Assembly: GCA_020431405.1 (NCBI GenBank)
Contig: JAGQIK010000584.1
Location: forward strand, 1-33,243
Reading direction: 5' to 3'
Length of the DNA: 33,243 bases
Source of the DNA: Myxococcales bacterium
GTDB taxonomy: Bacteria; Myxococcota_A; Polyangia; GCA-2747355
Shown here: positions 5,712 through 27,069 of the stretch, piece after piece
Numbering within the stretch: the first letter of the stretch is position 1
How the letters are laid out: each line of letters begins with the position of its first letter
Translations under genes and position numbers: made by a program
The notes under the pieces: generated by a model
The model's input: the letters and a program-made list of their open reading frames with translations, nothing else
Databases searched by the model: none
Told to the model about the DNA's origin: nothing

Positions 5712-7457
5712 GTGGCTAGCGCAGCCACAGCGATTCAAAGGCCGCGCGAAGACGGGGCTCAGACCCACTACGGCCGCTACGAGATCGTCCGCAAGCTCGC
5801 CACCGGCGGCATGGGAGAGGTGTTTCTAGCGAAGTCTCGCGGCGCCGCGGGCTTTCAGAAACACGTCGTCATCAAGAAGATCCTGCCGCACCTGGTCGAG
5901 CATCAGCAGTTCGTCGACGGCCTCGTGCGCGAGGCCAAGCTGCTCGTGCTGCTCGACCACCCAAACATCGTGCAGGTGCTCGATCTGGGGCGCGACGGGC
6001 CCGACTACTTCATGGCCATGGAGTTCGTCCATGGCTACAACATGGCGACCATCGCCCACTACTGCGCGCAGAAGCGGGTGCTGATCCCGCAAAACGCCTG
6101 CGCGTACATCGCGCTGCAAGTGCTCGGCGGGCTCGAGTACGCCCACGACATCACCGGCCCCGAGGGCGCGCGCCACAACATCATCCACCGCGACGTCTCG
6201 CCGCAAAACGTGCTCATCTCGCGCGATGGGCGCGTCAAGCTGACCGACTTCGGCATCGCCAAGGTGCTCAACGAGGCCGAGGCCGAGGTCACCAAGAGCC
6301 TCAAGGGCAAGTTCCGCTACATGGCGCCCGAGGCGGTGGACGGCGGCCGCATCGACCAACGCTACGACCTCTTTGCGGCCGGGATCCTGCTCTTCGAGGG
6401 GCTCTGCCGCCGGCACCTGTTCGGTGGTCGCAGCGACGTCGACATCCTCGCGCAGGTGCGCGAAGCGCGCGTCCCGCCCATCGCTCGTTATCACCCGGGC
6501 GTTTCGCCCGAGCTCGTCGCCGTGGCCGAGCGCGCGCTGGCCAAGGATCCAAGCGATCGCTACCAGAACGCCGCCGACTTCGCCGGCGACCTGCGCCGCG
6601 CGATCCAGCCGGTCACCGACAACGAGGCCGGCAAGGAGCTGCGCGCGTTCATCGAGGATCTCTACGAGCGCGAAGACTTCCCGATCAACAAGCCCAAGCT
6701 GCCCGACGTCGACGCGCCGGATCCAAACGTCACGCGCTCGGTGGTGCTGACGTCGAATCTCGGCATCGCGCACGACGAGCTGGCGCCCTCCAAGGGCGAG
6801 CGGCGGCCGCAGAAGAAGGTCAGCGGTGTGATGCTGCTGTCGATCGGCTTCGTGCTGATCACCTGCGCCGTGGCCTACCTGGCCTACGCGCTGCTGGTCA
6901 AAAAGAACGACATCGGCGCTGGCTCCGCGGGCAGCCCTGTGATCATCAAGGTCGAAAAGAACGGCAGCGGCAGCACCGCCGCTGCGTCGCGCGGCAGCGG
7001 CAGCGGCAGCGGGGCGATCGTCGGCGTGGGATCGAGCAGCGGCAGCGGCGACGTGGATCCAGGCAGCGGCGACGGCACCGGCAACGGCAGCACGACGGCT
7101 GCCGGCAGCGGCAGCGGCAAGCCCGCGCGCGCCAAGGTCGGCCGTCACAAGATCCGCCGCCACCGCCCGGGGCCGTTCAAGAGCGCTATGGGACGGCGCG
7201 CCTTCGCGCGCCACCAGGGCAGCCTCTACAAGTGCTTCCAGAAGCACGTCAAGCCGGGCGATCCGGCGGTCTCGCTGCGCGTCGTCTCGACGATCCTGGC
7301 CAGCGGCCACGTCAAGCAGGTCGTCATCGAGCCGCCGACCCGCGCCAACTCACCGCTCGGCCGCTGTGTCGCCGCGGTGGCCAAGCGCATCCGCTACCCG
7401 CGCCACGACAAGGCCGAGGTTGCATTCCACCAGCCGCTGAAGGTCAAGATGCAGTAG
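5712..7457 (+). CDS. Transmembrane Ser/Thr protein kinase with AgmX/PglI-like C-terminal domain
   Basis: A 581-residue Hanks-type kinase. The kinase domain (about residues 23-298) keeps the Gly-rich loop LATGGMGEVFLA, the ATP Lys in VVIKKI (about residue 55), HRDVSPQN (159-166), DFG (179-181) and MAPE (204-207), so it should be active. A transmembrane helix spans about 372-395 (MLLSIGFVLITCAVAYLAYAL). The exported part has a long Gly-Ser-rich linker, then a domain of about 90 residues with LYKCFQKH, VSTILASGHVKQVVI, LGRCVAAVAKRIRYP, which matches the AgmX/PglI-type tail found in many myxobacterial exported proteins. The GTG start has a GGAG five bases upstream. It probably couples an envelope signal to cytoplasmic phosphorylation; substrates are unknown. 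Confidence 0.88.
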   Translation: MASAATAIQRPREDGAQTHYGRYEIVRKLATGGMGEVFLAKSRGAAGFQKHVVIKKILPHLVEHQQFVDGLVREAKLLVLLDHPNIVQVLDLGRDGPDYFMAMEFVHGYNMATIAHYCAQKRVLIPQNACAYIALQVLGGLEYAHDITGPEGARHNIIHRDVSPQNVLISRDGRVKLTDFGIAKVLNEAEAEVTKSLKGKFRYMAPEAVDGGRIDQRYDLFAAGILLFEGLCRRHLFGGRSDVDILAQVREARVPPIARYHPGVSPELVAVAERALAKDPSDRYQNAADFAGDLRRAIQPVTDNEAGKELRAFIEDLYEREDFPINKPKLPDVDAPDPNVTRSVVLTSNLGIAHDELAPSKGERRPQKKVSGVMLLSIGFVLITCAVAYLAYALLVKKNDIGAGSAGSPVIIKVEKNGSGSTAAASRGSGSGSGAIVGVGSSSGSGDVDPGSGDGTGNGSTTAAGSGSGKPARAKVGRHKIRRHRPGPFKSAMGRRAFARHQGSLYKCFQKHVKPGDPAVSLRVVSTILASGHVKQVVIEPPTRANSPLGRCVAAVAKRIRYPRHDKAEVAFHQPLKVKMQ

Positions 7458-17218: not shown

Positions 17219-17321
17219 GCCGCGCGCCCTCGATGCGGGTGCGTTTCTCAACTCGCTCGAAACGCTGTGATACGATCGAAGCTCTCCAATTGTGATCTGG
17301 CTTACGAGGAGGGCTGCGACC

Positions 17322-19271
17322 GTGCTCACCCGCTCAAAGGTACTGTGTGTTGCCGTCATCGGGCTGCTCGCCATCGCCTGCGGCGACGATTCGAAGCAGC
17401 AACAACAGAGCTGGCCCGACTTCGGTGATGGTCCAGCGGCACGCCCCGATCAGGGCATCACCGACATCGGCGAGCTGCCCGATGGCCTGCCGGCCAACCC
17501 CGAAGGGCCGGTGATCGAGTTCCAGTCGCCGATGGCGGGCGAGGTCGTCGCCGGCGCGGTGGTGAAGATCCGCGCCAAGATCACCGACCCCGACGGCATC
17601 GATGATCAGTCCGTCACCGTCACCGCGCTCAACGGCGATCCGGTCAAGATGACGATCACCTCCGAAAACGACGTCTACGAGGGGCTCGTCGACATCTCGG
17701 TGTTCACCGACAACGTGGCGGTGCGCGTGCAGGCCGCCGATCTCGGCGGTCAGGCCAACACCAAGGACCTGCTGTTCAAGCGCGACCCCGGCCCGCAGAT
17801 CCAGATCATCTCGCCCGCCGAAGACAGCCGCCACAAGGGCAGCGTCTCGGTGCGCGTCGTCGTCACGCCGCGCGGCGGCCGCACGATCAAAGCCACCGAG
17901 GTACGCATCGGCTCGGTGATGGTCACGACGACGAGCAAAGATCTGGCGAACGGCAAGAAGGAGTACACGGGCACCATCAAGTTCGATGACCCACAGTTCG
18001 TGCCGCCGCTGTCGGGTGCGCAGGTCATCAGCGTCGACGCCACCAACAGCGAGGACACCACCAGCAGCGCCCAGCGCAACTTCGTCGTCGACGACGCGGG
18101 GCCGACCATCGCGATCACCAGCCAGGTCGCCGGTCAGCTGATCGGCGGCATCATCCAGCTGCGCGCCGAGGTCAAAGACGAAGCCGGCATCGTGCCTTCC
18201 ACCGTGCGTGTCGTGATCGGCAACAACCTCGACACGCGCAACGTGGTGCTGCGCAACAGCGCGGGCACCAGCGTGTGGACCGGCCAGTTCGACACGCGCA
18301 CGCTGCAGCAGAACTACCTCTGGCCGGTGATGTCGTTCCGCGCCGCCGACACCCTCGGCAACGAGTCGCACGAAGACATCGAGGTTGGCCTCGACAACGG
18401 CGCACCCGTCATCGAGCTCGACCAGCAAGGCACCTACTACCACTGGCGCGAGAAGGAGAAGAAGTTCGAGGCCTCGCACCCGTTCGACGCCCTCGGCACC
18501 GACACCGCCAACGACGGCGACCAGGTGCCGCAGATCACCAAGCTGCGCGCGCGCGTCGAGGACTCCGGCAACTACGCGCCCTCGGCGCCGTGGATCCCGA
18601 TCTCGGCCGTCGACTTCTCCACGGTGCGCATGTTCGTGCTCGACGACACCAGCCAGGCGCTCGTCGTCGACACCGACGACGACGGCTACTGCGACGCGAT
18701 CAACCCCAACTTGATCCCCAAGGGCAGCACGCCGGCGCCGGGGCAGGCGGTGGCGGTGACGATGGTCGGCCTCGCGCCGTCCGGCACGGCCGACTTCACG
18801 CCCACCGGCAGCCCGCCCGGCGGATTTGACGACGGCACGGACCCAGACCCACCCAAGCCGCTGTGCAAGACGACGCCGTCGACGGTCTGGACCTACGCCA
18901 ACTCGACGGCCAACCGCCCGGCGATCTTCACCATCCCGCCGATCTCGTCGACGAGCATCGGCTGCGAGGGGCTGCCCTTCGACTTCCTCGCCAACCAGTT
19001 CACCGACAAGAGCTGGGTTTGCGTCGCCGTCTCCGCGCGCGACAACCTCGGCAACCGCGGCGTCTCGCAGCCGCTGCGCGTGTTCTACGATCAGTCGTAC
19101 GTCCCCACCGCCTACGGCTACACGCCCTACACCGGCGGCACGGCGATGCCCAACTGCACGGGCACGCTGCAGGCCAACGGCACCGTCGACACGAGCAAGC
19201 CGTGCATGTTCCGCGCCGCCGGCGACCCCAAGCCGCAGCGCTTCCCCACCTCTTGGCTCAAAGAGCAGTAG
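17322..19271 (+). CDS. Large lipoprotein with several Ig-like domains
   Basis: The GTG at 17322 is preferred over GTG at 17292: it has an AGGAGGG about ten bases upstream and gives a clean lipoprotein signal (VLCVAVIGLLAIAC, lipobox Cys at 20, then GDDSKQQQQ). The 649-residue protein then shows at least three Ig-like modules, each opening with a G-P-x-I-x-I pattern: GPVIEFQSPMAGEVV, GPQIQIISPAEDSRHKG and GPTIAITSQVAGQLIGG. A fourth possible unit starts at APVIELDQQGTYYHWRE. The C-terminal third is rich in Thr/Pro with paired Cys (for example DDDGYCDA, PLCKTTPS, SIGCEGL, CTGTLQ, KPCMF). It probably sits on the cell surface or in the periplasm as an adhesin or scaffold. Convergent with the repeat-protein gene. 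Confidence 0.72.
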   Translation: MLTRSKVLCVAVIGLLAIACGDDSKQQQQSWPDFGDGPAARPDQGITDIGELPDGLPANPEGPVIEFQSPMAGEVVAGAVVKIRAKITDPDGIDDQSVTVTALNGDPVKMTITSENDVYEGLVDISVFTDNVAVRVQAADLGGQANTKDLLFKRDPGPQIQIISPAEDSRHKGSVSVRVVVTPRGGRTIKATEVRIGSVMVTTTSKDLANGKKEYTGTIKFDDPQFVPPLSGAQVISVDATNSEDTTSSAQRNFVVDDAGPTIAITSQVAGQLIGGIIQLRAEVKDEAGIVPSTVRVVIGNNLDTRNVVLRNSAGTSVWTGQFDTRTLQQNYLWPVMSFRAADTLGNESHEDIEVGLDNGAPVIELDQQGTYYHWREKEKKFEASHPFDALGTDTANDGDQVPQITKLRARVEDSGNYAPSAPWIPISAVDFSTVRMFVLDDTSQALVVDTDDDGYCDAINPNLIPKGSTPAPGQAVAVTMVGLAPSGTADFTPTGSPPGGFDDGTDPDPPKPLCKTTPSTVWTYANSTANRPAIFTIPPISSTSIGCEGLPFDFLANQFTDKSWVCVAVSARDNLGNRGVSQPLRVFYDQSYVPTAYGYTPYTGGTAMPNCTGTLQANGTVDTSKPCMFRAAGDPKPQRFPTSWLKEQ

Positions 19272-19286: not shown

Positions 19287-19315
19287 GCCCGAGCTCGCGC
19301 TAGAGCAGCTCGGGC
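19287..19315. terminator. Hairpin between convergent genes
   Basis: A perfect nine-base inverted repeat, GCCCGAGCT (19287-19295) and AGCTCGGGC (19307-19315), with an 11-base loop sits between the Ig-like lipoprotein gene and the repeat-protein gene, overlapping the last codons of the latter. There is no T-run on either side, so any terminator activity would be non-classical. Confidence 0.35.
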
Positions 19316-22300
19316 GGTCCGAGCGCCTCGCCGCCCGCCGGCGACGTCAGCACCTTCAACACCCCCGCCGACTTCTTGCCGCTGCCGCCGCCTCCGCCGC
19401 CACCCTTGGCCGGAGGCTGCTGGCGCGGCTGCGGCCGCGGCTGCGGCTGCGCGCCGGGCGTCGCCGGCAGCGGGTCGAGCTTGATGTTGATGAAGAACAG
19501 CAGCTTGACGAAGCGGTTGCGGCCGATGCGCTGGTAGCCGAACAGACCACCGGGCAGCACCTCCCAGCGGAAGTCGCCCGGGCGGTCACGCGCCACGGTG
19601 AACAGCGGGAAGAAGTGAAACGCCCAGCGGTCGTTGACCTTGCTGCGCCAGTAGTAGGCGTTGGCCACCAGCGTGTAGTGGTCCTTGGCCTTCTCGATGT
19701 CCCAGAACAGCGGGAACACGACGCGCGTGCGGTAGCTCGGACGCCGGAAGTACCAATACAGCGGAAAGCCGATCGTCGTCGCGCGTTTGACGCCGCCGAA
19801 GTGCCAGAACAGCGGGAAGACGAGCACGTCGGATGATTTCTCGCGCGAGCGCACGTAGACGTTGGGCACCACGAACCACGAGGTCGCCTTCTCGACGTTG
19901 TCGCGGTGGCGCATCAGCAGCGGAAACAGCACCGTCGTGCGCGAGGCGAAGCGGTTGTTGAAGTCCCAGTACAGCGGGAACGCCACGGTGGCGCTCGAGT
20001 CGACGTCGCGATAGCGCCAGTAGAGCGGGAACAGCAGGTGGAAGGCGCTCTCCTTGGACCAGGTGCCGTAGTACGACGGCAGCGAGAAGAACGTCGAGCG
20101 CTGCGTCAGGTGGTTGCGGTGGTAGACGAACAGCGGGAACGTCATCGTCAGCGTGCGCTTGAGCGTGCGCGCGTGCAGGATCGGCGGCACGTACCAGAGC
20201 TTCTGATCGCTCGACAGCTCGAGGCCGAAGATCGGCGTGAAGAAGCGCCACTTGCCGATGCCCTTGTGGTTGTAGAACAGCGGGAAGAACGCCGTCGTGC
20301 GCTCGCTGGGCGACGAGCCGTGATAGAAGATCGGCGCCAGGCCGAAGGCGCTGTGGTCGTTGTTGCGGCGATAGAAGAACGGCCCGACAAACGTCGTCGA
20401 CGTGCGCGCCTTGGTGTTGCGCCAGTGCCAGAACAGCGGCGGCACGTGCGTGTAGCTGCTCACGCGCGTGTTTTTGTGAAACAGCAGCGGCATCAGGCCG
20501 AGGCTGTAGCCGTGCTCGTCCTTATCCTCGCCGCGGTAGGTGCGGTAGTAGAACGGGCCGACGATCCACAGCCGACGACGCTCCTTGAAGTCGTTGTGAT
20601 AGAAGATGAACGGCAGCGAGGCGAGGTAGCTGCTCTTGTTGTCGCGCTGGTAGAGCGCAAACGGGAACAGCACGTCGGTGCGCTTGTACTCGCGCTTGGA
20701 CCAGTGCCGATACGAGATGTAGGGGCCGTAGACGAGCGTCTTGCGCTCCTGATTCCAGAAGCGCCACACCAGCGGGAAGATGACCGTGAAGTTCTCGCCG
20801 CCCTTTTCGCGCTGCCGGAAGTAGAACGGGAACACGGCGAGGTTGCGCTGCTTGGGGTCGGCGATGTGCCAGTAGATCGGAAACACGACCAGCGCCTTCT
20901 GCTTGGGCGAGTCGTGGCGCACGCCGAAGGGCAAGATGATCGTCGTCGTCGACTTCTCTTTGGGCCGCTTGTAGTGAAAGAGCAGCGGGATCACGGCGAA
21001 GCCCGATAGCTCGCTGCTGTGGCCCCAGATCACGGGGCCGATCACGTTGCGGCGCAGCCCCGTGCGCGAGTTGCGCTCGAAGCCGCCCAGCGGCGTGACC
21101 AGCAGGCGCTGCTCGCGCGTGCGCTTGTAGTAGAACAGCGGAAGCACCGTGGTGTCCGAGCGCAGCACCGCGCCTTTGGCGTCGAGCTGCGCGCGATGGT
21201 GCGCCAGCGGAAACACCGTCCAGCCGGCGCGCCGCTTCTCGCGGAAGCTGTAGTAGAGCCCCGCCAGCGTGGTGTGCTCGCCGGTGCGCGGGTCGCTGCT
21301 GCGATAGAACAGCGGCGGTAGCACGGTGGTGTAGTCGCGGCCCTTCCAGTGGCCGGTGGCGAAGAGCGGCAAAAGCCCGGTGACCGTGCCTTTGCGGCTC
21401 TTGCTGCGCACGAAGGGGCCGGCGATCCACGTGTCGTAGCCGTCGGACACCGAGCTGACGTGCCAGAACGCCGGAAACAGCACCTGGTAGCGATCACCGC
21501 CGCGGCGGCCGGCGAAGAAGATCGGCGCCAGGCCGGCCTGCCAGCCGCTGCCGTATTCGCGCCGGAAGTACAGCGGGCCGAGCACGGTCGTGCTCGTGCG
21601 CGGGTTCTTGATGTGCCAGAAGGCCGGAAACAGCACGGCGTGGCGATGCCCCTGCGTGGCGCCGGTGAAGAGCAGCGGGAAGATGCCCGCCGACCAGCCG
21701 GTCTTCTTCGAGCGGTAGTACAGCGGGAAGAGCAGGTTGAAGCTCGTGCCGTCGGGGCTGCTGTTTCGATAGAAGATCGGAAACAGCACGCTGGTGGCGT
21801 TGCCGCTCTGCCGATCGGCGAAACGCCAGAACAGCGGAAACAGGATCTGCGTGTCGCCTTCGGGATCGTGGTGATACCAGAACGGCGGCACGACCCAGTT
21901 GGTGGTGCGCTCGACCTTGTCGTACCAGCGCCAGACCAGCGGGAAGAGCGTGTCGACCTCGCGGTGGCTGTCGCGGCGGTGGTAGAACGGCGGCACCAGC
22001 ATTCCCCACTGCGTGACCTTCGCCGCGTCGTCGCGCTCGTAGAGAAACAGCGGCGAAAAGACGTTGGCGCGCCGGCCGCCGTCGACCTTGCGGTAGTAGA
22101 AGATCGGCAGCAGCGTCGTGTAGCTGCGACGCGGGCTCGACGAGTGCCACAGCAGCGGAAACAGCACGGTCGTCGCGCTGTCGCGCGTGCGATGGCGATA
22201 GAAGAGCGGCGCGATGGTCGTCGATTCGCCGGGGCGCCGCCGGTAGTAGAACAGCGGCAGCAAGGCGGTGGTCTTGGTGTCGCCTTCGCGCGCGTGGAAG

Positions 22301-23172
22301 TTGAGCGGCAGCACCCAGGTAAACGAGCTCTGCGGTCCGCTCGAGTGATAGAAGAGCGGGAAGATCGCGTTGGCGCGCTGCTGCTCGTGACGCTTCCAGT
22401 AGTAGATGCCGAAGAGCAAGCCGCGCGAGTAGGCGTTCTTCGAGTCGCTGCCCCAGAACGTCAACAGCGGCGGCAGCACCAGCAGGCGCTTGGTGTCGTT
22501 GCGCGAGTAGTGAAACAGCGGCAGCACCGTCAGGCCGGCGCCCTTGTCGTAGTCGGTCCAGAAGAGCAGCGGCCAGAAGCGATAGTTGCGCTCGCCGGGC
22601 GCGCGCCGGTACTGGAACGGCGGCACGATCACGCTCACCGTCTTGGCTTTGTCGTCTTCGAAGCGCCAGTAGAACGGGAAGAACACGCGCGAGCGCGAGG
22701 TCTTGTCGCTGAAGCGCCAGTAGAACGGAAAGACCACGCGGTAGCCCGGCGTGCCGGCGTGGTGCCAATAGATGCCGAGTGCCTCGGTGAAGCGTTTGTC
22801 GCCCGAGCGATAGAACAGATACATCACGTTGATCGGCGTCGTGACCTTGTGGCACTTGTGGTCGCCGAGGATGTGGCAGAAGTTGCCGACGCCGCACTGC
22901 GCGTCGCTCTGGCACGACTTGCCGATGGCGGTCTTGGGGTCGACCTTCGGCGGCGGCGCTGACGTGGCCGGCGCCGCGGCAGCGGGCTGCGTCTTCGCGG
23001 GCGGCGGCGACTTCTGCGCCACGCGTTTCCACTGAAACGGCGACGCGTCTTTGGCCCGACCGTCTTTGGCCCTAGCGAGCCGGAAGAAGGGCGAGCCTGG
23101 GCCTGCGTGCGCCAGCGAGGGCAGGGCGACGATCGACAGCAGGAGCGCGAGGCGGAGCGAGTGGAGGCTCAA
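19300..23172 (-). CDS. Giant exported protein of about 60 aromatic FPLF(Y/W) repeats
   Basis: A 1290-residue protein. A signal peptide (LALLLSIVALPSLAHA) is followed by a Pro/Ala linker and a four-Cys segment (Cys 87, 93, 99, 107; CQSDAQCGVGNFC). From about residue 148 to 1212 a motif recurs roughly every 18 residues, about 60 times: hydrophobic pair, F/L-P, L/F, then F/Y/W, W/Y and a basic or polar turn, as in VLFPLFWRF, TTVLFPLLWHS, VFFPFYWRF. The C-terminus is Pro/Gln-rich, then poly-Gly (GGGGGGGSGKK). Each unit looks like one beta-strand plus a turn. I know no named family with this repeat; a very large barrel, a beta-solenoid or a surface fibre are all possible. The start appears to be TTG without a clear ribosome-binding site; it follows the small exported-protein gene by 34 bases. 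Confidence 0.8.
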   Translation of the reverse strand: MSLHSLRLALLLSIVALPSLAHAGPGSPFFRLARAKDGRAKDASPFQWKRVAQKSPPPAKTQPAAAAPATSAPPPKVDPKTAIGKSCQSDAQCGVGNFCHILGDHKCHKVTTPINVMYLFYRSGDKRFTEALGIYWHHAGTPGYRVVFPFYWRFSDKTSRSRVFFPFYWRFEDDKAKTVSVIVPPFQYRRAPGERNYRFWPLLFWTDYDKGAGLTVLPLFHYSRNDTKRLLVLPPLLTFWGSDSKNAYSRGLLFGIYYWKRHEQQRANAIFPLFYHSSGPQSSFTWVLPLNFHAREGDTKTTALLPLFYYRRRPGESTTIAPLFYRHRTRDSATTVLFPLLWHSSSPRRSYTTLLPIFYYRKVDGGRRANVFSPLFLYERDDAAKVTQWGMLVPPFYHRRDSHREVDTLFPLVWRWYDKVERTTNWVVPPFWYHHDPEGDTQILFPLFWRFADRQSGNATSVLFPIFYRNSSPDGTSFNLLFPLYYRSKKTGWSAGIFPLLFTGATQGHRHAVLFPAFWHIKNPRTSTTVLGPLYFRREYGSGWQAGLAPIFFAGRRGGDRYQVLFPAFWHVSSVSDGYDTWIAGPFVRSKSRKGTVTGLLPLFATGHWKGRDYTTVLPPLFYRSSDPRTGEHTTLAGLYYSFREKRRAGWTVFPLAHHRAQLDAKGAVLRSDTTVLPLFYYKRTREQRLLVTPLGGFERNSRTGLRRNVIGPVIWGHSSELSGFAVIPLLFHYKRPKEKSTTTIILPFGVRHDSPKQKALVVFPIYWHIADPKQRNLAVFPFYFRQREKGGENFTVIFPLVWRFWNQERKTLVYGPYISYRHWSKREYKRTDVLFPFALYQRDNKSSYLASLPFIFYHNDFKERRRLWIVGPFYYRTYRGEDKDEHGYSLGLMPLLFHKNTRVSSYTHVPPLFWHWRNTKARTSTTFVGPFFYRRNNDHSAFGLAPIFYHGSSPSERTTAFFPLFYNHKGIGKWRFFTPIFGLELSSDQKLWYVPPILHARTLKRTLTMTFPLFVYHRNHLTQRSTFFSLPSYYGTWSKESAFHLLFPLYWRYRDVDSSATVAFPLYWDFNNRFASRTTVLFPLLMRHRDNVEKATSWFVVPNVYVRSREKSSDVLVFPLFWHFGGVKRATTIGFPLYWYFRRPSYRTRVVFPLFWDIEKAKDHYTLVANAYYWRSKVNDRWAFHFFPLFTVARDRPGDFRWEVLPGGLFGYQRIGRNRFVKLLFFINIKLDPLPATPGAQPQPRPQPRQQPPAKGGGGGGGSGKKSAGVLKVLTSPAGGEALGPPELL

Positions 23173-23206: not shown

Positions 23207-23785
23207 TTAGAGCGGGAGGATCATCTTCCACTCTTTGTTTTCGCGCACGAAGCGCAGCTCGCCTTCTTGCGACTGCGTTCCGTTCTTGCGGCGCACGCGC
23301 ATCACCGCGACCGCACCTTTGATCTTCGTGCCCACCACCGATAGCTGCGCGCTGCCCCACTGCTTCTTGAGCTGCGCGATGAACTTCTTCGGCGACGCCA
23401 TCTGCACCTGGTGGTTGAGGATCATCTGGTAGTAGGTCGAGTGCGTGTCGATATACGTCGCGAGGTCGCCCTTTAGCGCGGCGCGACGCAGGCGCTTGAA
23501 GCTCTTCTTCGGCGTCGACAGCGCGACACGCGGCTTGGGCAGGCGAAACTGGATGCGGCGGATCTTGGAGACGGGCAAGCGCATCTTGCTGCCGTTGGGC
23601 AGCCTGATCGTCGCCTGGCCGTCGTAGTAGTGCAGCAGCTGGCCGACGATCTTGGTGCGGTCGATGAGCTGGATGACCTCGTCGGCCAAGGCGGCTCGCG
23701 GCGCGAGCAGGGCGGCGGCGAGCAGAAAGCAGGCCGCTGCCAGCCGATGCGCCGTATGGCGGCGAGCGTAGATGCCGCTTTGCAT
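23207..23785 (-). CDS. Small exported protein upstream of the giant repeat protein
   Basis: A 192-residue protein with a signal peptide (AAACFLLAAALLAPRAALA, then DEV). Residues about 36-78 form a small beta-domain of the SH3/Sm-like type seen in many exported bacterial proteins: LIDRTKIVGQLLHYYDGQAT, then GSKMRLPVSKIRRIQF. The remainder (about 95-192) looks like a cone-shaped alpha+beta fold with a helix pair (SFKRLRRAALKGDLATYIDT) and a strand-rich end, GAVAVMRVRRKN then LRFVRENKEWKMILPL, reminiscent of NTF2/SnoaL-like domains. The ATG has a GGAGG eight bases upstream. It is the first gene of a two-gene operon and may chaperone or anchor the repeat protein; that role is inferred from position only. 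Confidence 0.68.
   Translation of the reverse strand: MQSGIYARRHTAHRLAAACFLLAAALLAPRAALADEVIQLIDRTKIVGQLLHYYDGQATIRLPNGSKMRLPVSKIRRIQFRLPKPRVALSTPKKSFKRLRRAALKGDLATYIDTHSTYYQMILNHQVQMASPKKFIAQLKKQWGSAQLSVVGTKIKGAVAVMRVRRKNGTQSQEGELRFVRENKEWKMILPL

Positions 23786-24078: not shown

Positions 24079-27069
<2,991 letters not shown>

What the first reader, a model, noticed from the sequence alone, without database searches (positions are those of the whole stretch)
19300..23172. About 60 tandem 18-residue aromatic/proline repeats in one exported protein
Seen: from residue 148 to 1212 a core such as VLFPLFWRF or TVLPLFYYK recurs about every 18 residues, roughly 60 times, with variable turns and no insertions of other domains. 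A signal peptide, a four-Cys module and a poly-Gly tail frame it. Known: I recall no named repeat family with this F-P-L-F/Y-W consensus; MORN, WG, YD and RHS repeats differ in length and key residues. Inference: each unit is one beta-strand and a turn, so the protein may be a very large barrel, a solenoid bridging the envelope, or a surface fibre. This is the best candidate for an undescribed system here.
Basis: partly seen in the sequence, partly recalled or inferred. Interest (0 to 1): 0.85.

Follow-up and report, generated by a model that had tools for sequence, protein, structure and literature searches.

The report
Giant exported hairpin-repeat ribbon protein
A bacterium of a myxobacteria-like lineage exports a protein made almost wholly of about 60 copies of a small aromatic- and proline-rich beta-hairpin, predicted to line up as one very long single-layer sheet and, in its clade, encoded next to the same small exported partner protein; its fold resembles known hairpin-repeat scaffolds, but its sequence family, size and gene setting are essentially undescribed.

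Summary
The 1290-aa product of window 19300-23172 (-) holds about 60 tandem units of about 17.7 residues (consensus TTVLFPLFWRxRDPxx), far above shuffled controls. It is not one strand per unit: AlphaFold2 on nine units (mean pLDDT 88) and covariation across about 1,600 units indicate that each unit is a beta-hairpin, with one polar turn and one apolar Pro turn. The closest solved folds are the rare single-layer meander sheets (CPAP/Sas-4 TCP domain, MORN arrays, OspA). This protein would have about 124 strands against about 20 in CPAP. There is no match of the array in Pfam, PHROGs or PDB sequences. A curated but functionless NCBI model (LA_1737_Cterm, NF047486) covers part of the family; one relative passes its cut-off. 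Relatives with 24 to about 100 units occur across the class and show a three-unit superperiod. In one clade of long forms, an N-terminal four-Cys module and a small exported partner gene directly upstream occur together: 27/27 with both, 0/15 with either among the rest. Best reading: an exported envelope scaffold or spacer ribbon with a dedicated partner. The hairpin fold is fairly well supported; function and overall shape are inferred.

The parts
19300..23172 (-). Gene of the hairpin-repeat protein (1290 aa, TTG start)
   Evidence: homologues in 26 of 39 related genomes
23104..23172 (-). Sec signal peptide, residues 1-23 (ends AHA|G), no lipobox
   Evidence: sequence, judged by eye; similar leaders in relatives
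22852..22914 (-). Four-Cys module, residues 87-107 (CQSDAQCGVGNFCHILGDHKC)
   Evidence: weak matches to Dickkopf_N and Myxo_Cys_RPT; present in 27/27 relatives with the partner gene, 0/15 without
19522..22791 (-). Array of about 60 hairpin units, residues 128-1217, consensus TTVLFPLFWRxRDP
21226..21693 (-). Nine units (residues 494-649) modelled by AlphaFold2, mean pLDDT 88.3
   Evidence: fold matches
19462..19623 (-). Conserved C-terminal cap, residues 1184-1237 (FPLFTVARDRPGDFRWEVLPGGLFGYQRIGRNRFVKLLFFINIKL)
19303..19461 (-). Variable Pro/Gln/Gly-rich C-terminal tail, residues 1238-1290
   Evidence: not conserved among relatives
23207..23785 (-). Partner gene: 192-aa exported protein; C-terminal part probably NTF2-like, N-terminal half looks like a small SH3/Sm-like barrel (by eye)
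   Evidence: directly upstream of the repeat gene in 14 first-set loci and 13 of 13 further genomes found by the partner alone
17292..19271 (+). Convergent neighbour: probable lipoprotein with Ig-like Big_7 domain
   Evidence: Pfam Big_7; homologue beside the repeat gene's 3' end in 9 other partner-clade loci

Best explanation
This is an exported, extremely long beta-meander protein. SHOWN by computation: about 60 tandem units of 17-18 residues; relatives with 24 to about 100 units; an N-terminal four-Cys module that co-occurs with an upstream partner gene. PREDICTED with good confidence for a nine-unit stretch: each unit is a beta-hairpin whose polar turn (RDPxG) lies on one edge and whose apolar Pro turn (VLFPLFW) lies on the other, so that the chain forms a single-layer sheet like the CPAP TCP domain or MORN arrays. 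INFERRED: after Sec export the about 124 strands form a stiff ribbon, or a superhelix with a three-hairpin repeat, tens of nanometres long, that acts as a structural spacer or scaffold of the cell envelope or surface. The continuous aromatic/Pro edge would be the docking or self-association strip, and the Cys module the likely attachment site of the small exported partner protein.
For: Array statistics. AlphaFold2 model of 9 units: mean pLDDT 88.3, pTM 0.69, strand-2-strand-3 pattern per unit. Fold matches: CPAP/Sas-4 TCP domain Z 13.5 (149 aligned, rmsd 8.2 A), MORN1 Z 12.2 (155 aligned, rmsd 5.9 A), junctophilin Z 9.9, OspA Z 9.7, SET7/9 and the phi92 spike lower. OspA, SET7/9 and that phage spike are the natural elongated single meander sheets named by the CPAP authors (PMC3776556). 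Covariation peaks at hairpin pairs +5/-5 and +3/-3 across the polar turn. Apolar residues sit on both faces next to Pro and charged residues at the other edge. Partner and Cys module co-occur 27/27 against 0/15.
Against: The full-length model failed (pLDDT 28), so the overall shape is unknown. The 9-unit model rests on 12 rows cut from only two proteins, some out of phase, and Foldseek gave no hit at E <= 0.001. The covariation test is weak in a divergent subset and does not settle pairing across the Pro turn. The long hydrophobic edge is odd for a free-standing soluble ribbon. No cell-biological data bear on location or function; Z of 12-13.5 shows a shared arrangement, not homology.
Confidence: 0.5

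Rival explanations
1. A compact rod: hairpins wind into a superhelix with three hairpins per turn, apolar Pro edges forming the axis and charged tips pointing out, in the manner of choline-binding modules (about 20 turns here).
For: Family-wide similarity of units at lag 3 and 6 but not 1, 2, 4 or 5; small residue before Pro recurs every third unit with z 5.9 and 4.8 at lags 3 and 6 after the three recently expanded proteins and several close orthologues are left out; three-unit block expansions in L028, L045 and L046; choline-binding modules are hairpin-plus-linker solenoids of triangular prism shape (PMC4471590, PMC5137146). It buries the hydrophobic edge.
Against: Fold comparison ranks flat single-layer sheets first and no choline-binding module was listed in the rows shown (a missing listing does not exclude it). 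Linkers of 3 residues are shorter than the about 6 of choline-binding repeats. The unit differences between the window protein and L051 are one and two units, not three.
Confidence: 0.3
2. A peripheral membrane ribbon: the aromatic/Pro edge inserts into one leaflet of a membrane along its whole length, the charged edge facing the periplasm or medium; it could tether or stiffen the outer membrane or guide lipids.
For: Positions -3 to +3 around Pro are apolar on both faces while the other edge is charged in about 60 units; Trp/Tyr at +3 resembles an interfacial belt; exported by signal peptide.
Against: No lipid-binding domain match; MORN arrays, of similar architecture, were long assumed to bind lipid, but a structural study recasts them as protein-interaction modules (PMC7725318). 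Net charge is not conserved: basic in the window protein, acidic in L045 and L047.
Confidence: 0.15
3. A giant transmembrane beta-barrel or a lipid-transport groove bridging the envelope.
For: Meander strands, export signal, hydrophobic residues on both faces.
Against: Strands of 6 residues with tight 2-3-residue turns on both edges and half of each strand polar are too short to span a membrane; fold matches are single-layer sheets; no Pfam barrel or TamB/AsmA match.
Confidence: 0.05

Closest known systems
TCP (G-box, Tcp10_C) domain of CPAP/Sas-4
   Same: Tandem beta-hairpins in one single-layer antiparallel sheet; aromatic residues along one edge; best structural match (Z 13.5; PMC3776556)
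   Different: About 20 strands against about 124; PDG turns rather than FPL and RDPxG turns; cytoplasmic and eukaryotic; no sequence match in Pfam
MORN repeats (MORN1, junctophilin)
   Same: One hairpin per repeat in an elongated all-antiparallel sheet; Z about 12; bacterial members exist (PMC7725318)
   Different: About 23-residue YEGEW-type units and 2 to over 20 repeats; no Pfam MORN match here
LA_1737 family (NCBIfam NF047486; the name is that of a Leptospira locus, from my own knowledge)
   Same: Profile matches the repeat array of the window protein (50 bits) and several relatives; L042 scores 87 bits, over the cut-off of 60
   Different: The model covers only 158 residues and names no function or structure; the window protein itself is under the cut-off; no paper on LA_1737 was found
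Choline-binding modules (LytA, CbpL)
   Same: About 20-residue aromatic hairpin repeats; triangular arrangement that would suit the three-unit superperiod here
   Different: Different consensus and longer linker; no Pfam match; not among the rows shown of the fold matches

Membership tests
MORN repeat | Match to the Pfam MORN profile with about 23-residue YEGEW-type units | tested here: not met
   No MORN match at E <= 1 in P0001 or seven relatives; unit is 17-18 residues
MORN repeat | One beta-hairpin per repeat in an elongated single antiparallel sheet | tested here: met
   AlphaFold2 model of nine units, pLDDT 88; Z 12.2 to MORN1; predicted, not solved
TCP / Tcp10_C domain | Sequence match to the Tcp10_C profile | tested here: not met
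   No match in Pfam at E <= 1
TCP / Tcp10_C domain | Free-standing single-layer meander of hairpins | tested here: inconclusive
   Best fold match Z 13.5 but rmsd 8.2 A over a 9-unit model; global shape of the full array not modelled
LA_1737 family (NF047486) | Score over the curated cut-off of 60 bits | tested here: not met
   P0001 50 bits, E 3.1e-13; relative L042 87 bits, over the cut-off
Choline-binding module | Match to the choline-binding repeat profile | tested here: not met
   No Pfam match at E <= 1
Choline-binding module | Hairpins stacked in a triangular superhelix (three hairpins per turn) | tested here: inconclusive
   Three-unit superperiod in sequence but no model of the superhelix
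Outer-membrane beta-barrel | Membrane-spanning strands of about 9 or more residues with alternating faces | tested here: not met
   Predicted 6-residue strands with short turns on both edges

The most novel reading that the evidence does not exclude
A new class of bacterial envelope nanofilament: a single exported chain that folds into an uninterrupted single-layer beta ribbon (or three-hairpin-per-turn rod) of about 124 strands, tens of nanometres long, with its own Cys-module docking site and a dedicated exported partner, widespread in a myxobacteria-like class and never characterised.
Probability: 0.3. Interest if true: 0.8.

Novelty: new variant of a known kind. Interest (0 to 1): 0.6.

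Why it matters
The CPAP structure paper counted very few natural single-layer meander sheets (PMC3776556). A bacterial family with 24 to about 100 hairpins per chain would offer natural sheets of many lengths for studying sheet stability without a core, and may be a molecular ruler or scaffold of the envelope in a myxobacteria-like lineage. The strict co-occurrence of Cys module and partner gene gives a direct test of function.

Tried and rejected
AlphaFold2 on residues 82-1241 with one homologue gave pLDDT 28 and is not used. A first internal-repeat alignment of 12 units (A5) and a C-terminal one (A9) aligned poorly and were not folded. Collection scans: the genome scan returned one locus, L051; three viral scans, phages and plasmids gave no relative, so it is not a phage or plasmid gene on these data. 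PDB sequence search gave nothing credible. Literature search for LA_1737 returned only unrelated tomato and mosquito papers; one query was malformed. Foldseek's top rows by E-value (UVR8, BamB, RCC1 propellers) have TM about 0.2 and were set aside as noise. Choline-binding modules did not appear among the fold matches shown, which does not exclude them. hisS next to short forms and plsX-fabD next to some long forms are lineage-specific neighbours and say nothing on function. Covariation in the window protein alone is uninformative.

Full report
THE OBSERVATION. The reading frame at 19300-23172 (-) encodes 1290 residues from a TTG codon, with the codon-position GC bias of a real gene. Its hydrophobic residues repeat every 17.7 positions, with spectral power far above 500 shuffles. 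A weight matrix trained on the family finds about 60 contiguous units, residues 128 to about 1215, plus a terminal cap; the total score is 823 against at most 38 in shuffles. The consensus, numbered from the nearly invariant Pro (0), is T-5 T-4 V-3 L-2 F-1 P0 L+1 F/Y+2 W/Y+3 R/H+4 x R+6 D+7 P+8 G+9.

KNOWN FAMILIES. Pfam gives only weak hits in the Cys module, PHROGs none and PDB sequences none. NCBIfam NF047486, LA_1737_Cterm, matches the repeats at 3.1e-13 (50 bits, cut-off 60). A relative, L042, scores 87 bits and passes the cut-off. So there is a curated name, without function, for part of this family.

RELATIVES. 26 of 39 related genomes hold homologues, and the window's own genome has a second copy with its own partner (L028). 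A C-terminal profile finds the family in 45 of 284 genomes drawn across the phylum, 41 of them in the window's class. Unit counts run from 24-29 (short forms) through 54-65 (most long forms) to 80-100. Phage and plasmid collections hold none. The lineage name is inferred: the homologue L051 lies in a record titled Deltaproteobacteria.

STRUCTURE. The full-length prediction failed for want of alignment depth (pLDDT 28). I then aligned non-overlapping nine-unit windows of the protein itself and of its homologue L051. This gave a model of residues 494-649 with mean pLDDT 88.3. Every unit shows strand-turn-strand: six residues, a 2-3-residue polar turn, six residues, then a 3-residue apolar turn holding the Pro. 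The unit is thus a hairpin, not one strand. The closest solved structures are the CPAP/Sas-4 TCP domain (Z 13.5), MORN1 (Z 12.2), junctophilin and OspA. The CPAP paper describes its domain as a single-layer sheet of about 20 strands without a core and names OspA, SET7/9 and a phage spike as the only other natural cases in the PDB of 2013 (PMC3776556); these same proteins appear in my list. rmsd values are 4-10 A for most rows and no Foldseek E-value is below 0.001, so this is shared architecture, not shown ancestry.

INDEPENDENT SUPPORT. Across 32 proteins and 1,585 units, covariation between neighbouring units peaks at +5/-5 and +3/-3, the pairs expected for a hairpin across the polar turn. 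In that set the in-register sum (x+y=0) has mean z 9.7 against 5.0 on either side. The test is weaker in 15 divergent proteins and does not resolve pairing across the Pro turn; orthologues share history, so the z values are not probabilities. Residues -3 to +3 are apolar on both faces while the rest is polar, so the ribbon has one hydrophobic and one charged edge.

THREE-UNIT SUPERPERIOD. Units resemble those three and six places away, but not one, two, four or five (mean z over 42 proteins 1.45 and 1.58 at lags 3 and 6, otherwise slightly negative). In L028, L045 and L046 the array grew by three- or six-unit blocks. After those and several close orthologues are left out, a small residue before Pro still recurs every third unit (z 5.9 and 4.8). 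This suggests a superhelix with three hairpins per turn, as in the triangular choline-binding modules (PMC4471590, PMC5137146), or three-unit building blocks. The available model cannot decide.

GENE SETTING. Directly upstream, 34 bases away, lies a 192-residue exported protein (23207-23785) whose C-terminal part is weakly NTF2-like (DUF4440, SnoaL and Lumazine_bd_2 hits). Its homologues precede the repeat gene in 14 first-set loci. A search with the partner alone found 28 copies in 27 genomes. Of these, 13 lay in genomes not used before, and all 13 have the repeat gene directly downstream; one further copy sits at a contig end. All 27 repeat proteins with a partner carry the four-Cys module, and none of 15 without a partner does. 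These proteins are related, so 27 is not 27 independent events. A convergent Big_7 lipoprotein gene (17292-19271) is shared by nine other partner-clade loci.

FUNCTION. Export, length, regularity and lack of any catalytic domain argue for a structural role. I propose an envelope or surface scaffold or spacer, with the aromatic/Pro edge as the contact strip and the Cys module as the docking point for the partner. In CPAP an aromatic edge binds a proline-rich peptide (PMC3776556), and Pro-rich stretches flank the array here, but this is only an analogy. If flat, about 124 strands at 4.8 A would span about 60 nm (inference). Location, partner binding and function are untested.

VERDICT. A real and unusual repeat family of a known architectural kind, largely undescribed, with a clear next experiment.

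Noticed in passing
window 17292-19271 (+): Probable lipoprotein with an Ig-like Big_7 domain, convergent with the repeat gene; homologues sit at the same place in nine other partner-clade genomes. Possibly a third component.
   Followed up: partly
L028 2123-5680 (own genome, contig C232): Second long copy in the same genome, with its own partner gene upstream and a strong three-unit (53-residue) repeat, a sign of recent block expansion.
   Followed up: partly
L048, L069-L072: Short forms (24-29 units, no Cys module, no partner) lie directly behind hisS, often overlapping it, in at least two families.
   Followed up: no
L036, L038, L074: Long forms without partner lie beside the plsX-fabD-fabG-fabF fatty-acid cluster.
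   Followed up: no
L031-L035, L057-L068, C-termini: Many partner-clade members of other families end in a conserved (Q/K)TAWYG motif about 25 residues before the C-terminus; the window protein lacks it.
   Followed up: no
window 5712-7457 and 24079-27069 (+): Ser/Thr protein kinase-like genes near the cluster, the second with a C-terminal PEGA domain; similar kinases lie near the repeat gene in many relatives.
   Followed up: no
L046 and L075: Largest arrays seen, about 100 and 80 units.
   Followed up: no
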